NCBI GenBank assembly: GCA_022709995.1
Contig: JAKLHU010000009.1
Coordinates: 1-14,130 of the forward strand
Origin: Verrucomicrobiota bacterium
Lineage (GTDB): Bacteria; Verrucomicrobiota; Lentisphaeria; Oligosphaerales; Oligosphaeraceae
Reading direction: 5' to 3'
Length of the DNA stretch: 14,130 bases
Each line of letters begins with the position of its first letter. Positions within the stretch are counted from its first letter, which is position 1. Position numbers and translations under genes: made by a program. Positions 1-10,932 of the stretch are shown piece after piece. The notes beneath the pieces are model-generated. The model saw nothing but the letters and a program-made list of their open reading frames with translations. It did not search any database and was not told the origin of the DNA.

Positions 1-137
1 GGCCTGGGGCGCCTACTGGGCGTGTGGGTGGATGGGAGCGCCCCAGAGGCCTGGGGCGCCTACTGGGCGTGTGGGTGATGGGAGCGCCCCAGAGGCCTGG
101 GGCGCCTACTGGGCGTGTGGGTGGATGAGAGCGCCCC
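1..137. repeat. Tandem 46-47 bp hairpin repeat, three copies, open at left edge
   Basis: Three head-to-tail copies lie at 1-47, 48-93 and 94-137. The second lacks one G of the GGTGG run. The third has one G-to-A change and diverges at its end. Each complete unit has a 9-bp perfect inverted repeat, CTGGGGCGC at its start and GCGCCCCAG at its end (4-12 and 38-46 in the first copy), so each could fold as a long-loop hairpin in DNA or RNA. The array starts at base 1, so it probably continues outside the window. The repeats have no unique spacers between them. They lie just past the stop codon of the minus-strand eboE-like gene and would be in its 3' untranslated region. Function is unknown; a repetitive extragenic palindrome type of element is one possibility. 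Confidence 0.9.
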
Positions 138-138
138 C

Positions 139-162
139 GAGTCGGCGCCCCGAGTAGGCGCC
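139..162. repeat. Imperfect direct repeat overlapping the eboE stop codon
   Basis: GAGTCGGCGCC (139-149) is followed 13 bp later by GAGTAGGCGCC (152-162). AGTAGGCGCC (153-162) is also the exact reverse complement of GGCGCCTACT inside each tandem unit to the left (for example 8-17 and 101-110). The eboE transcript could therefore pair its stop-codon region with any repeat copy, forming alternative stem-loops. No U-run follows, so this is not a standard intrinsic terminator, although a structured 3' end is possible. Confidence 0.6.
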
Positions 163-3869: not shown

Positions 3870-4673
3870 ATGAAGGAGTGTTTTCAGGCAGTGGCACGGG
3901 TGCTGCTTCGGCCGTTTCGAGGAGCGGCGCCGGTGGTCTTGGCGGAGGAAAGGGAGCTGGCGGGGGTCTACCAGCTGGCGCTGTTTCTGGCATTGTCCGG
4001 GCTGCTGTTCGGGCAGGCCGCCGGCCGGATGCTCAGTGCCTTGTTGGCGGAGGGGCAGTGGCCGGCAGTACGCTTTGGCATTGGGCTGCTGCCGTTTCAA
4101 GTTGCGGCGTTTGTCGGCGCCATGGCCGGCCTGTATCCGTTTTGGCGCCGGTACGGCTGGCGCCAGCTGCTGGCCTTGCCCCGGGACGCTGATGATGGCG
4201 GCGATGGCGGCGTCGCCCGGGGAGTTGCCAGTGGCGTGCGAGCACTCCTTCTGTTGTATCCGGTTCTGTTGGCCGTCAACGCCGCCAGCTCCTGGGCGTG
4301 TCACCGGCTTGGCATTCCGACGCCGCCGCAGTCTCTGCAGGTTTATGCCGAGCAGTCGCCGGGAATGGCGTTCTGGCTGCTGGCGGCAGTCAGCGTGGTG
4401 ATTTTGGCGCCGGTCACCGAGGAGATTCTTTTTCGGCTGGTCGTCTATCGTGCCCTGATTGGCGTCTGGCCGCGGCAAGCCGTGATTGTGACTTCGGCCG
4501 TGTTTGCGGCGGTGCATGTCACGCCGCAGTATGTCCCAGGTCTTTTCCTGGTCGGCATGGTGTTGCAAAAGGCTTTCTGCCAAGGCGGGTTGCGTCACGC
4601 CATTATCTTGCACTGCCTGTACAATCTGGTGTCGCTGCTGATATATTTGTCCGTTCACGCCTTGGGGTGGTGA
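3870..4673 (+). CDS. CPBP family intramembrane glutamic endopeptidase
   Basis: The 267-residue polytopic membrane protein carries the three signatures of the CPBP (Abi/CAAX protease) family: EEILFR (Glu184-Glu185 to Arg189), FAAVH (Phe212 to His216) and HCLYN (His248 to Asn252). Hydrophobic segments lie near 33-50, 69-90, 122-142, 167-182, 203-215, 221-234 and 244-262. Such proteins cleave within membranes; in bacteria various members act in maturation of peptides, bacteriocin self-immunity or signalling, and the substrate here cannot be told. The ATG at 3870 has AAAGGA close upstream with a short spacer. In-frame GTG at 3858 and TTG at 3840 would add 4 and 10 residues. The gene is divergent from dppA through overlapping promoters and converges on ung with 16 bp between stops. 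No bacteriocin precursor gene is nearby. Confidence 0.88.
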   Translation: MKECFQAVARVLLRPFRGAAPVVLAEERELAGVYQLALFLALSGLLFGQAAGRMLSALLAEGQWPAVRFGIGLLPFQVAAFVGAMAGLYPFWRRYGWRQLLALPRDADDGGDGGVARGVASGVRALLLLYPVLLAVNAASSWACHRLGIPTPPQSLQVYAEQSPGMAFWLLAAVSVVILAPVTEEILFRLVVYRALIGVWPRQAVIVTSAVFAAVHVTPQYVPGLFLVGMVLQKAFCQGGLRHAIILHCLYNLVSLLIYLSVHALGW

Positions 4674-5464: not shown

Positions 5465-7456
5465 TCAAGAGTATTCCACGGCCACGATTTGGGCCATGTT
5501 CAGGGTTGGAATGGTGAACGCGATGCGGTTGCCGGCGCAGGTGAACGGCAGCAGCGTTCCCTCCGGAACCAGCCGGACTGTTGTGGGCGGCTGGCGGACG
5601 GCGAAGGTGACTTGGACATCCGCCAGAGGGATGATGTCTTCGATGACTTCGACGTTGCCGCGTTTGACCGGAGCGGCGTAGAGCAGATGCAGAAGATGAC
5701 GGTTTTCCTGTTTCTGCCAGGTGATGTTGGCACGTCCACAGGACGGCAGCGAACAGGTCAGCAGCCGTTCGGGATAGAGCCGGTCGAGGCAGTTCAGGAC
5801 AAAGTCGCGGTGCAGGCGCATGCCTTGCTCGTGGTAGATGCCGAAGAGGGGATGGGAGAGGTAGATGATGTTGCCGTGCTGGATGGCGGCCGGCCATTCC
5901 GCCTTCGCGCCCGCCGGGCTGTTGCGGTGGGAGCAGAAGTGGGCGTAGGTGCGGTTGAAGACGGGCGCCCAGGTGGACGCGAGGGTCTGCGCCTGGTCCG
6001 GGCGGCAGGTCATGCCGCCGCGATAGGTCAGGAAAGGCGACGTGACCAGGTTGTTGGACACCTCCGGGCCGGCTTCGATGAATTCCACGTCCCAGGGCGA
6101 CCGGCCCAGGCATTCGGCCCCCAGGTCGAGAGCAAAGCGCTCGCCGTTCATGTCCAGGCCGCTTTCATAGGACGCCAGGATGCTGCCGCCTTGGGCGAGA
6201 AAACGGCTGAGCTTGTCGCGGAGACCGGGGTCAAGCCGGGCCTGGTCCGGCAGGATGATCAGCCGGTAGGGGGACAAGTCCATGGTCTCGTCAATGATGA
6301 CATGGGGTATTTGCCTTTCCATCAGCATCTTGGTGGCGCCGAAGACAGCGCGGTCGTGGTCGTCGCCGAAAAGCATTTCCATGGTGGCCAGAATGGCGAC
6401 GTCGGCTGCGGGGCGGGCGTTCTTCAACCAGGGTTCGCGTGTTTCCAGATACTCATAGGCATGGCCGATGATCCGGTACGTCTCGGGGTCCATGCGGCCG
6501 GAGGGATGGAGTTGGTCGCCGACGGAGGCGAGGCATCCCAGGCTGGCGATCTGGGCGCATTCGTAGCGGAGGGCGTCCGGGTGCTTGAAGCCGCCGAATT
6601 CGCCCCAGGCCGTATGGAATTTGCCGGTCATGCCGACGACTTGTCCGGGTTGCAGCTGGGTGAAATAGCGCGCATTCATGGGGAAGAAGTCATAGCCCCA
6701 GCCGCCGCTGGGCAGGGATTCGATTTCGAGATGGCTGTCATACGCGAACAGGTCGTGGCGGCCTTTTTTGCTGGAGCCGTTGTGGAAGACGGTGGTTTTC
6801 GGGTTGATGCCCCAGATGAGGTCGGTGGTAGCTTTCAGGTAGCGCTTGTAGGTCAGGGCGGCGAATTGCTTCTGATCGTCAGGTGAAGCGGGGTTGAGGC
6901 CAAGTTCGCGCATGGAGGCTTGGCAGCGTTCGCAGCTGCAGGGCAATTCGCGGGTGATGTCGAACCAGATGCCCTCCGGGTGATAGCGTTGGAGGACTTC
7001 GGCCGTCACGTCCAGGACTTGCTGGAGGTAGGGCGAGTTGAGGCAGAGGTTCCGCCATCCCGGGGGGCGGGTGCTGTGCGGGTGTCCTTCGCCGGGGCCG
7101 CCGAGGATTTTGCCGTCCGGGGAACGGATGCACCAGTCGGGGTGTTCGCGGGAAGCCTTGTCATTCCAGCCGACGGTGATGTAGACTTCGGCGTTGACGC
7201 CTTCCTCGCGGCAGACCTTGAGCATGCCCCCGACCAGGTCGGTTTTCAGGTTGGGGTGCGTCAGGCCATGCACGGCGTTGGGATAGTAGCACCAGCCATG
7301 GTGGCAGCAGGCGAAGAAATTGATGGACTGGACGCGTCCGCGGCGCAACTGTTCGGCGAACTGTTTTTCGCTGAACTGGCCGCCGATATCAAGGCAGTGT
7401 TCCGAGGTGTGGAAGTCAAGGTGAATCTGGCGGTTGGGCAGATTGGTCGCGAACAT
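5465..7456 (-). CDS. GHL6-type glycoside hydrolase with a beta-galactosidase trimerisation-like domain
   Basis: The 663-residue protein fits the hypothetical glycosyl hydrolase 6 (GHL6) architecture. An N-terminal TIM barrel (about 1-345) opens with RQIHLDFHTSEH (9-20), then FFACCHHGWCYY (47-58), HPDW (105-108), GIWFDI (162-167) and the ESLPSGGWGYDFFP block (246-259). A flavodoxin/amidotransferase-like domain similar to the trimerisation domain of GH42 beta-galactosidases follows (about 350-560), then a short beta-rich C-terminal domain. Asp166 and Glu244 or Glu246 are plausible active-site acids, by position only. There is no signal peptide, so it would act in the cytoplasm on imported sugars. 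The ATG is well supported by GGAG at 7465-7468 with an 8-nt spacer. Related proteins are variously annotated as fucosidase-, amylase- or beta-galactosidase-like; the substrate is unknown. Confidence 0.82.
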   Translation of the reverse strand: MFATNLPNRQIHLDFHTSEHCLDIGGQFSEKQFAEQLRRGRVQSINFFACCHHGWCYYPNAVHGLTHPNLKTDLVGGMLKVCREEGVNAEVYITVGWNDKASREHPDWCIRSPDGKILGGPGEGHPHSTRPPGWRNLCLNSPYLQQVLDVTAEVLQRYHPEGIWFDITRELPCSCERCQASMRELGLNPASPDDQKQFAALTYKRYLKATTDLIWGINPKTTVFHNGSSKKGRHDLFAYDSHLEIESLPSGGWGYDFFPMNARYFTQLQPGQVVGMTGKFHTAWGEFGGFKHPDALRYECAQIASLGCLASVGDQLHPSGRMDPETYRIIGHAYEYLETREPWLKNARPAADVAILATMEMLFGDDHDRAVFGATKMLMERQIPHVIIDETMDLSPYRLIILPDQARLDPGLRDKLSRFLAQGGSILASYESGLDMNGERFALDLGAECLGRSPWDVEFIEAGPEVSNNLVTSPFLTYRGGMTCRPDQAQTLASTWAPVFNRTYAHFCSHRNSPAGAKAEWPAAIQHGNIIYLSHPLFGIYHEQGMRLHRDFVLNCLDRLYPERLLTCSLPSCGRANITWQKQENRHLLHLLYAAPVKRGNVEVIEDIIPLADVQVTFAVRQPPTTVRLVPEGTLLPFTCAGNRIAFTIPTLNMAQIVAVEYS

Positions 7457-7604
7457 GCGGCGTTCTCCAATATAATAATGATTTAAGACGGCCGGCTCCC
7501 GGGGGGTCGGCGGCGGACGCGCGTCTGGCCTCGGGGAGAGGTGACTAATATACTCCGCGTCGACGGCGAGCGGAAGCCCGGGCGGCGGTTTCCCGGAAAA
7601 AGAC

Positions 7605-7728
7605 GTAATCGGTCACCCATCAATAATGGCGGTCCTAGTGGACAGGCGCGCCAAGGTGGCGCCTCAGGCCCTGAGGCGCTCAAGCGTTGACTCCTCTATC
7701 GCTCAATTCTCAATGGGTGACCGATTAC
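7605..7728. mobile_element. 124-bp MITE with 16-bp terminal inverted repeats, IS66-like ends
   Basis: The left end GTAATCGGTCACCCAT (7605-7620) is matched by its exact reverse complement ATGGGTGACCGATTAC (7713-7728). Immediately outside both ends is the same 8-bp direct repeat AAAAAGAC (7597-7604 and 7729-7736), the expected target-site duplication. No transposase fits in 124 bp, so the element is non-autonomous. IS66 family elements are known for terminal repeats starting GTAA and 8-bp duplications, so a related IS66 transposase elsewhere in the genome is the likely mover (inference). The two ends differ inside the 16-bp repeats, as in an internal deletion derivative of a larger element. Perfect repeats and duplication suggest recent insertion into the shared upstream region of two divergent genes. 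Confidence 0.88.
7659..7679. repeat. Perfect palindrome inside the MITE
   Basis: GCGCCTCAGG (7659-7668) and CCTGAGGCGC (7670-7679) are exact reverse complements around one central base, close to the middle of the MITE. It could extrude as a cruciform or form an RNA hairpin with a few central bases unpaired. Confidence 0.8.
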
Positions 7729-7803
7729 AAAAAGACAGCTTGCCGGAGGCCAGGGGCGCTGGCGGCGGTTGGCGGCGGTTGAACAATTTGCTGGGCGGGG
7801 TGT

Positions 7804-7831
7804 CTGACAAAGCATGGCACTGTGGTATATT
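7804..7831 (+). promoter_or_regulatory. Extended -10 sigma70-like promoter for the C39-like protease gene
   Basis: CTGACA (7804-7809, five of six matches to TTGACA) is followed after 16 bp by TATATT (7826-7831), with an extended -10 TGG directly before it (7823-7825). Transcription would begin near 7838, giving a leader of about 70 nt before the ATG at 7909. This argues against a GTG start at 7837. The promoter lies 68 bp right of the MITE duplication and appears to be native sequence. Confidence 0.6.
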
Positions 7832-7908
7832 AGGCCGTGGTCCGGGTGGTTTCCGGTCCTGCCGCGTCGGCCAGTCGACACGTGATACAAAGTTATTCGG
7901 GAACTGGC

Positions 7909-9210
7909 ATGCATAAAGTGACAATGGCTTTACTGCTGGTGGTGATGGCTGTCTTGCGCGGCCAGTCGCTGGACAGCTTTCTGGAGGAGCGCGGGCGTCG
8001 TTTGTGGGACACGACCGGGCGCATGGTTCTCGAGTCTTTTCCGGGCACCCTGGGCTGGAGTGCCGCCGACTTTACGCAAATGCGGTACTCGGCGGACAGC
8101 GTTGGCCGGAAGCTGACGTTTGCCGGCATCCCCTTGCCCGAGGTCATCTTCTATTATGACGACAAGGCGGTGGACAAGCTATCCCGGAAGCTGGTCTCCC
8201 TGCAAGTATCGGTGTTCAACCGCGGCGATTGCGGCGCCTGGGACAAGAAGCGTTTCCAGGCGGCGCAGACGGCCGTGGAGAAGCGTCTCTGGGAGTTGAC
8301 GCGCGACCGCAATCCCAGCCGGAGTCGCCGTTTTCTCGACCAGGCGCGCATTGAGCAAGCCACTTGGCGGGCGCCCGGCTATGACGCGTCCCTGCGCTGG
8401 AGTGGCCGCGGGGACGAGAACGAATACATCACCCTGCTGTTTGCGGAGCGCGGTTCCACCGGCAAGCTCGGCGAGGAAATCCGCGCCAGCCTGAACCGCG
8501 GCGAGCTTCGCGACCGCAAAATAAAGGACCGCGACGGCGCCATTCGCCTGGAAATCCCGCCGGTGACCCAGGGCGGCAAGGGCTATTGCGTCGGCGCCAC
8601 CTTGGAACGTGTGTTGAAATACTTCGGCTCGGAGGTCGACCAGCACATGATTGCCCAAATCGCGGAGTCGGACGCGAAGGCCGGCACCAGCATGGACGTC
8701 GCGCTGCAGGCCTTGAAGAATGCCGACCGCAAACTGTACGTGCGGATCCAGGATGTTTATGTCGACGACAGCTTTGCCACGTTGGCCGGATTGAACAATC
8801 TGTTTGAAAAATACAACCGGCTGGCCCGGCAGAAGCGTCTGCCGGAGGTGGATGGCTCCTTGCGGCCGCGCGGCGGGGTGGTTGACCCGTCCGACCAGCT
8901 TGCCCGTATGGATCCGTCGGTGTTCATCGCCAGCCGGCAGAAGCGCGATCGAGGCGCCAAGTGGTTCATGCAGGAAATCCGCAACAACATTGACCGGTCC
9001 TATCCGTTGTGCTGGTCGCTGATCGTGTTCCCCCAGGACACCCAGCAAGGCCAATTTGGCTTTCACATGCGCCTCATCAATGGCTATAACGTGAAGAATA
9101 ACACGATTGTCTATACGGACACCTGGGGGCCGGAGTCGGCGGCAAAAACCATGCCTCTGGACGAGGCCTGGGCCAAGACCACGCATCTGATTCTGGTCTC
9201 ACCGCGTTGA
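7909..9210 (+). CDS. Secreted C39-like (papain-fold) cysteine protease
   Basis: The 433-residue protein begins with a signal-peptide-like segment (MHKVTMALLLVVMAVLRGQS, residues 1-20), so it should be exported. Residues 21-215 are a charged region with no recognised domain. The C-terminal half carries a C39-like catalytic set: Gln221 (oxyanion) and Cys227 in TQGGKGYCVGATLERVLKY, His386 in FGFHMRLINGYN, and Asp404 in YTDTWG. C39-like domains are common in extracytoplasmic proteins of PVC bacteria, and many are not ABC-transporter leader peptidases; no ABC domain is present here. Substrate and exact role are unknown. The ATG at 7909 is chosen because the signal peptide starts there; the ribosome binding site is weak (CGGGA). 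A GTG at 7837 would hide the signal peptide and coincide with the transcription start. Confidence 0.82.
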   Translation: MHKVTMALLLVVMAVLRGQSLDSFLEERGRRLWDTTGRMVLESFPGTLGWSAADFTQMRYSADSVGRKLTFAGIPLPEVIFYYDDKAVDKLSRKLVSLQVSVFNRGDCGAWDKKRFQAAQTAVEKRLWELTRDRNPSRSRRFLDQARIEQATWRAPGYDASLRWSGRGDENEYITLLFAERGSTGKLGEEIRASLNRGELRDRKIKDRDGAIRLEIPPVTQGGKGYCVGATLERVLKYFGSEVDQHMIAQIAESDAKAGTSMDVALQALKNADRKLYVRIQDVYVDDSFATLAGLNNLFEKYNRLARQKRLPEVDGSLRPRGGVVDPSDQLARMDPSVFIASRQKRDRGAKWFMQEIRNNIDRSYPLCWSLIVFPQDTQQGQFGFHMRLINGYNVKNNTIVYTDTWGPESAAKTMPLDEAWAKTTHLILVSPR

Positions 9211-10778: not shown

Positions 10779-10932
10779 TGGTGCGACCCTTGCGCGCGCG
10801 GCAAATTTCAACGGCGGGGGGATGTATCTGACTATCACCTGGTGCGACCCTCGCGCGCGCGGCAAATTTCAACGGCGGGGGGATGTATCTGACTATCACC
10901 TGGTGCGACCCTCTCGCGCGCGGCAAACGGCG
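10779..10932. repeat. 61-bp tandem repeat array
   Basis: Unit 1 (10779-10839) and unit 2 (10840-10900) are identical except for one base (T at 10791, C at 10852). Unit 3 (10901-10932) matches the first 27 bases with one change, lacks a 6-bp block TTTCAA, matches CGGCG, then diverges. The unit starts TGGTGCGACCC, contains an alternating CG run, then GGCAAATTTCAACGGCG, and ends CTATCACC, which forms a small palindrome CACCTGGTG across each junction. There are no unique spacers. It shares no sequence with the array at the left edge. Confidence 0.9.

What the first reader, a model, noticed from the sequence alone, without database searches (positions are those of the whole stretch)
7597..7736. 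Recently inserted 124-bp MITE with IS66-like ends between two divergent genes
The 16-bp terminal inverted repeats are perfect and flanked by a perfect 8-bp duplication AAAAAGAC. That is strong direct evidence of transposition by an element too short to encode its own transposase. GTAA termini plus 8-bp duplication point to an IS66-type transposase acting in trans (family knowledge plus inference). A central palindrome adds a hairpin. It sits in the shared upstream region of a glycoside hydrolase and a secreted protease gene and could alter their expression. The pre-insertion site can be rebuilt by deleting one duplication and the element.
Basis: partly seen in the sequence, partly recalled or inferred. 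Interest (0 to 1): 0.75.

Follow-up and report, generated by a model that had tools for sequence, protein, structure and literature searches.

The report
IS66-type MITE with REP-like core
A 124-base non-coding transposon, one of dozens in this Lentisphaerota genome, inserted between two genes after the lineage split from two sequenced relatives; its ends match a full IS66-type transposon in one of them, and its middle is a hairpin that the same genome also carries at many other places.

Summary
It is a MITE. Fetched parts of this genome gave 47 full-length copies; 18 have identical 8-bp flanks and 29 have at least 7/8 (mismatched flank pairs: 0 of 2,162 at 8/8, 0.3% at 7/8). Both same-genus relatives hold the orthologous empty site with a single AAAAAG. 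The IS66 assignment is well supported: sister genome G001 holds a 2,566-bp element with the same TIR (one base different), an 8-bp duplication, and an IS66 transposase plus a DUF6788 gene; its terminal 35 bp match the MITE at 91%. The window's own genome (64% complete) has no detectable IS66 transposase, so the transposase acting there is inferred. Elements with such ends, of several sizes, occur in other Oligosphaeraceae. The effect on neighbouring genes is untested; the element lies upstream of both putative promoters.

The parts
7605..7728 (+). 124-bp MITE
7597..7604 (.). target-site duplication, left copy (AAAAAGAC)
   Evidence: single AAAAAG at the empty site in G001 and G002
7729..7736 (.). 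target-site duplication, right copy (AAAAAGAC)
7605..7620 (+). left terminal inverted repeat, 16 bp perfect
7713..7728 (-). right terminal inverted repeat, 16 bp perfect
7694..7728 (-). 35-bp right end shared at 91% with the transposase-upstream end of the IS66-type element in G001
   Evidence: G001:C5:24356-24390
7658..7680 (.). REP-like hairpin core (10-nt perfect arms); this copy has GGTG where most non-MITE copies have the GTAG tag
5465..7456 (-). neighbouring gene, glycosyl-hydrolase-like (GHL6)
7837..9210 (+). neighbouring ORF, weak C39-like peptidase match; start more likely the conserved ATG near 7910
7804..7831 (+). promoter-like site of the + gene, downstream of the insertion
   Evidence: conserved in G001 and G002, (promoter role inferred)
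7545..7553 (-). conserved GTATATTAG box, candidate -10 of the - gene, about 50 bp from the insertion
   Evidence: promoter role inferred

Best explanation
A non-autonomous IS66-type element (MITE). An IS66-family DDE transposase of the subgroup that travels with a DUF6788 gene binds the TIR and the adjoining 20-35 bp and moves the 124-bp unit into new sites, making an 8-bp duplication. Shown: many dispersed copies, TIRs, 8-bp duplications, empty orthologous sites for the window copy, and an autonomous-looking element with nearly the same ends and an 8-bp duplication in a same-genus genome. Inferred: that its transposase, or a close relative, is what moved the window copy, and that it binds these ends.
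For: Copies with 8-bp duplications: (18 of 47 at 8/8, 29 of 47 at 7/8 or better). Three copies identical over 124 bp at three sites with different duplications. Empty sites in G001 and G002. G001 element L096:3826-6391: TIR GTAATCGGTCACCGATTGATAA at both ends, duplication TTTTTCGC twice, PF03050 at 84.9 bits against a cut-off of 23.1, DUF6788 at 60.6 bits. The two nearest relatives of that transposase among the genomes searched also sit next to DUF6788 genes between GTAAT-type repeats: G012 (49% identical), perfect 24-bp GTAATGCCTCACCGATTGATATTG, and a second G001 element (39%), perfect 22-bp GTAATGCGTCAGTGAAGCTGGG. TIR-bounded elements with 8/8 duplications in relatives, including O. ethanolica and MAG STF2_230.
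Against: No PF03050 protein in the window's genome (64% complete, 692 contigs), and no hit of the G001 transposase in the G000 stretches held. In O. ethanolica (100 TIR sites in a 5.73-Mb contig) none of the 9 IS66 matches lies beside such a TIR (positions compared by eye; in the three of those loci scanned with up to 3 mismatches the ends look like GTAAGCGTTCGCCCA), so another transposase could be responsible there. Of 47 copies, 14 have only 0-4 of 8 matching flank bases. The MITE interior is not a deletion product of the G001 element: only the terminal 35 bp aligned. The second G001 element shows no flanking duplication.
Confidence: 0.88

Rival explanations
1. The TIRs are recognised by a transposase of another family, for example the DUF6788-linked DDE_Tnp_1-like transposase present in this genome, and the likeness to IS66 ends is secondary.
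For: The window's genome has a DUF6788 gene overlapping an ORF with sub-threshold DDE_Tnp_1 matches, 248 bp from a MITE copy (L095), and no IS66 transposase.
Against: No TIR of this type was found to bracket that ORF: the only such inverted repeat in L095:1-2800 bounds the MITE itself. The IS66-type element in G001 carries these ends and an 8-bp duplication.
Confidence: 0.08
2. The 124-bp unit is a conserved regulatory or RNA element that spreads by recombination, not by transposition.
For: The hairpin is the best-conserved of the eight segments compared (mean major-allele frequency 0.964); the RNA fold is stronger than shuffles (z -6.2), though the inverted ends explain much of that.
Against: 8-bp duplications at 18 of 47 copies and an empty site in both same-genus relatives; no Rfam match in 7400-7950.
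Confidence: 0.02
3. The central hairpin is simply part of the MITE, and the non-MITE hairpins are debris of old MITE copies or parts of other repeats that share a piece with it.
For: A G001 MITE copy carries the hairpin with GGTG while G001 and G002 show no free hairpins, so the MITE-borne form may be the older. Some sites are half MITE, half other sequence (L294). Several non-MITE flank classes are themselves multi-copy repeats. Single-linkage clustering on either flank joined 95 of 104 hairpins into one group.
Against: With left and right flanks clustered apart, 22 left and 15 right classes hold no hairpin in a MITE match and no TIR-like sequence (33 and 34 hairpins). Outside MITEs GTAG is present in 32 of 38 hairpins and both variable stem pairs are Watson-Crick in 35 of 38, with three recurring arm alleles; in MITE matches the figures are 22 of 66 and 52 of 66, nearly all one allele.
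Confidence: 0.35

Closest known systems
IS66 family insertion sequences (subgroup without tnpA/tnpB, such as ISBst12; subgroup recalled)
   Same: GTAA-type ends, 8-bp duplication, PF03050 transposase in the G001 partner
   Different: The MITE has no gene of its own; the partner carries a DUF6788 gene beside the transposase where classic IS66 has tnpA and tnpB (classic gene set seen in passages of PMC12888890)
Bacterial MITEs with a parental IS, such as MITECca01 of Cardinium (169 copies, IS982-family parent; abstract and passages of PMC9769881) and MITEPsy1 (passages of PMC3189936)
   Same: Short non-coding unit with TIRs and several to many copies; a parental IS with matching ends is proposed
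   Different: IS66 rather than IS982 or IS5; candidate parent seen in a sister genome, not in the same genome; 8-bp duplication; REP-like core
GTAG-tagged REPs (PMC3733652: passages and section 7; PMC2817692: passages)
   Same: GTAG at the foot of a 9-10 bp palindrome, many copies, compensated variants, singles and tandem groups; the paper reports GTGG replacing GTAG in most GTAG-20 elements of O. terrae (Verrucomicrobia), and REPs lying inside longer palindromes in A. variabilis
   Different: No Y1 transposase found in this genome; 66 of the 104 hairpins held here lie in MITE matches (stretches chosen partly for MITE hits)

Membership tests
MITE | short, non-coding, bounded by TIRs | tested here: met
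   124 bp, 16-bp perfect TIRs; a 96-aa ORF that runs through it into the flank was not tested further
MITE | target-site duplication of fixed length | tested here: met
   8 bp; 18 of 47 copies 8/8, 29 of 47 at least 7/8, 14 of 47 only 0-4/8
MITE | multiple dispersed copies | tested here: met
   47 full-length copies in 81 held stretches of 340,373 bases of a 2.93-Mb genome
MITE | empty orthologous site | tested here: met
   window copy: G001 and G002 both empty; other copies not tested
MITE | autonomous partner in the same genome | tested here: not met
   no PF03050 match in G000, but that genome is 64% complete, so the absence is weak; candidate partner in same-genus G001
IS66 derivative | ends begin GTAA, 8-bp duplication (rule recalled; GTAA ends of IS66 also seen in PMC12888890) | tested here: met
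IS66 derivative | ends shared with an element encoding an IS66 transposase | tested here: met
   L096:3826-6391; 35-bp end at 91% identity
IS66 (classic) | tnpA and tnpB beside the transposase | tested here: not met
   the G001 element's upstream ORF is DUF6788; smaller ORFs of the element were not scanned
IS66 derivative | transposase active on these ends | not testable with these tools
   needs a transposition assay
REP (core hairpin) | GTAG at the foot of a 20-40 nt palindrome, many copies | tested here: met
   88 matches in G000 (at least three hairpins counted on both strands) against 0 control; GTAG in 32 of 38 non-MITE hairpins but 22 of 66 in MITE matches. The window copy itself has GGTG
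REP (core hairpin) | RAYT gene in the genome, flanked by the REP | tested here: inconclusive
   no Y1 transposase in G000, genome 64% complete
REP (core hairpin) | mostly extragenic | not tested
   no gene annotation of the fetched stretches

The most novel reading that the evidence does not exclude
The 124-bp element is a composite of two unrelated kinds of mobile repeat: IS66-type ends, moved by a DDE transposase, around a REP-like hairpin that this species also spreads on its own. The MITE would thus serve as a vehicle for the REP (or the REP population arose from the MITE), and its amplification would seed REP sites over the genome.
Probability: 0.45. Interest if true: 0.6.

Novelty: new member of a known kind. 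Interest (0 to 1): 0.42.

Why it matters
It gives a clean IS66-type MITE family with duplications, an empty site and a candidate partner, in a phylum (Lentisphaerota) where I found nothing in print: one search returned no paper, another returned 6 whose titles point elsewhere (listing only). Related lineages, including the cultured Oligosphaera ethanolica, carry elements of other sizes with the same ends, so MITE birth and the matching of transposase and ends could be studied there. If the composite reading holds, it offers a route by which REP-like hairpins multiply without their own transposase.

Tried and rejected
Conserved regulatory or RNA element instead of an insertion: rejected by the empty site and the duplications; no Rfam match either. 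IS66 proteins of O. ethanolica (G008) as local partner: not beside these TIRs (searches compared by eye); the weak IS66 match near 1,941,827 (30.4 bits) has 14-nt inverted repeats of another sequence around it. DDE_Tnp_1-like/DUF6788 ORFs of G000 as owner of the ends: no bracketing TIR found. Single CCGA-type ends of G001 as MITEs of the G001 element: 2 of 14 stretches gave a weak second end with 3/8 flanks and 12 gave none; one search found no second end with a duplication in 12 of 12. Hairpin clustering on either flank merged 95 of 104 because of mosaic sites; left and right flanks were then clustered apart. The tandem-repeat scan of L104 gave nothing, though the tail of the ~250-bp variant is partly repeated there by eye. 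Promoter scan: no terminator-like site.

Rows dropped: one search kept hits of at least 80 bits (50 rows); one search used 35 of those 50; one search kept only copies matching model positions 4 or less to 120 or more, over 80 bits and inside the stretch, so truncated copies and ~250-bp variants are not in the 47. One search counted 100 hairpins, searches counted 104 (different edge limits). Stretches were picked because they held MITE, TIR or hairpin hits, so densities cannot be scaled to the genome. Literature searches not otherwise cited: (5 papers; 12, 10 listed), listings only except PMC3733652 and PMC2817692; (22 papers, 8 listed), listing only.

Full report
What is there. The sequence reads exactly as reported: AAAAAGAC, a 124-bp element with perfect 16-bp inverted ends, AAAAAGAC, with a central palindrome of 10-nt arms.

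Copies. A search of the window's own genome (G000, 2.93 Mb, 692 contigs, 64% complete) gave 51 matches, with 40 of 125 first-look candidates scored. The 15-bp end pattern occurs 131 times with up to 2 mismatches, against 4 for the reversed pattern. From 81 fetched stretches I recovered 47 full-length copies: 18 have identical 8-bp flanks, 11 have 7/8, 4 have 6/8 and 14 have 0-4/8. Among 2,162 mismatched flank pairs none reached 8/8 and a fraction of 0.0032 reached 7/8. Three copies are identical over all 124 bases at three different sites, with duplications GGGATTTT, GGGAACTG and GTAGCGGG. This is transposition, partly recent; the window copy is about 4% from the consensus.

Empty site. The window's flanks (L009) align to both same-genus relatives at 83-88%. 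Aligned in detail, both lack the element and have one AAAAAG at the point of insertion (AAAAAGAT in G002, AAAAAGGC in G001). The insertion is therefore younger than the split of these lineages. Only this copy was tested for an empty site.

Who they are. End sites with up to 1 mismatch: G008 100, control 1; G001 35, G002 64, G017 111, G018 1, G023 229, control 0 in each. Counting the window's own genome, 7 of 59 searched genomes match the 124-bp sequence at E 0.001. Paired ends in fetched stretches show sizes near 124, 298, 430-480 and others, many with 8/8 duplications.

The transposase. G000 has no PF03050 match, and 10 of 29 family genomes do. In same-genus G001 one of them lies inside a 2,566-bp element, L096:3826-6391, with ends GTAATCGGTCACCGATTGATAA on both sides and the duplication TTTTTCGC. 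It encodes a 591-aa IS66 transposase and, upstream, a 140-aa DUF6788 protein. Its terminal 35 bp match the MITE at 91%. Two relatives of this transposase also stand next to DUF6788 genes between GTAAT-type repeats: one in G012 (49% identical; perfect 24-bp GTAATGCCTCACCGATTGATATTG, the second at the contig end, so its duplication cannot be checked) and a second one in G001 (39%; perfect 22-bp GTAATGCGTCAGTGAAGCTGGG, no flanking duplication). The G001 transposase matched 3 of 29 family genomes and 7 of 47 genomes of the order, five of the seven weakly; 21 database proteins match at 1e-20 or better, 7,993 candidates being scored. The MITE is not a plain deletion derivative of the G001 element, since only its terminal 35 bp aligned. 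Other end sites of G000 share more with that element (62 bp at 79% in L260, 83 bp at 75% at a contig edge in L246), which may be remnants of such elements.

The core. The hairpin is the best-conserved of eight segments of the family (mean major-allele frequency 0.964). The pattern GTAGGCGCCYCMGGCCCKGRGGCGCC (up to 2 mismatches) has 88 matches in G000, at least three hairpins being counted on both strands, none for the reversed control, one in G001 (inside the near-full MITE copy that one search lists) and none in 27 other family genomes. Of 104 hairpins in held stretches 66 lie in MITE matches and 38 outside. Outside, GTAG is present in 32 of 38, and the two variable stem pairs are both Watson-Crick in 35 of 38 (18, 8, 8 and 1 of four arm alleles); in MITE matches GTAG is present in 22 of 66 and both pairs hold in 52 of 66, 50 of them one allele (an earlier count with other edge limits gave 62 and 38). 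Clustered by flank, 22 left and 15 right classes contain no hairpin in a MITE match and no TIR-like sequence. These are features of a GTAG-tagged REP as described in PMC3733652 (passages and section 7), which also mentions REPs lying inside longer palindromes. Against this: no Y1 transposase was found in G000; the G001 MITE copy has the hairpin with GGTG, so the MITE-borne form may be the older; several flank classes are themselves repeats; the window copy has GGTG, not GTAG; and single-linkage clustering on either flank merged 95 of 104 hairpins. Which came first is open.

Neighbours. The element lies between a GHL6-type glycosyl hydrolase gene (-) and an ORF with a weak C39-like peptidase match (27.2 bits, cut-off 24); secretion was not tested. 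A sigma-70-like site at 7804-7831 (1 found, 0.2 expected) and a mirrored box at 7545-7553 are conserved in both relatives. The element is upstream of both, so it would not be in a transcript started there. An effect on expression is possible and untested.

Literature. 'IS66' with 'MITE' and 'miniature inverted-repeat transposable' gave 8 papers, of which I read passages of three; a search with four terms gave 3, two of them among the 8. The passages I read describe no IS66-derived MITE family; the other papers I saw only as listings. 'Oligosphaera' with 'miniature inverted-repeat' gave none. REP with MITE: 16 papers, 15 listed; I read passages of PMC3733652, PMC2817692 and PMC3189936.

Verdict. 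A genuine, well-supported IS66-type MITE: a new family of a known kind. The REP-like core is the one surprising feature.

Noticed in passing
window 1-141 (hairpins at 35-63 and 81-109, - strand): 46-bp tandem repeat, 3 copies, whose unit contains a GTAG-tagged hairpin like the MITE core (GTAGGCGCCCCAG-GCCT-CTGGGGCGC, read by eye): free REP-like hairpins in the same window.
   Followed up: partly
window 10779-10927: 61-bp tandem repeat, 2.4 copies, 97% matching.
   Followed up: no
window 7545-7553 and 7825-7833: Mirror-image boxes CTAATATAC / GTATATTAG, both conserved in G001 and G002, possibly the -10 boxes of the two divergent genes.
   Followed up: partly
L052:3841-4090, L082:804-1050, L092:3515-3765, L039 near 4000-4250 (-): About 250-bp variant: MITE positions 1-114 joined to a further ~137-bp tail that ends in a partial TIR; the near-full G001 copy is of this type, with its tail partly repeated.
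   Followed up: partly
L095:542-2356; L012:2071-2472: DUF6788 genes overlapping an ORF with sub-threshold DDE_Tnp_1 matches (G000) and 272 bp from a MITE (G008): DUF6788 may accompany more than one kind of transposase.
   Followed up: partly
L150:924-1161: 238-bp element with these ends and an 8/8 duplication in a MAG labelled Kiritimatiellae, sample Sandtown_F1, while a Lentisphaeria MAG with many such ends is from Sandtown_F2: transfer or mis-binning.
   Followed up: no
L316-L328 (G001): Single GTAATCGGTCACCGA ends for which no second end with a duplication was found.
   Followed up: partly
L246:18-100 and L260 from 2245 (G000): End sites sharing 83 bp (75%) and 62 bp (79%) with the ends of the G001 IS66-type element, longer than the MITE does; the first is at a contig edge, so a longer element may be broken there by the assembly.
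   Followed up: partly
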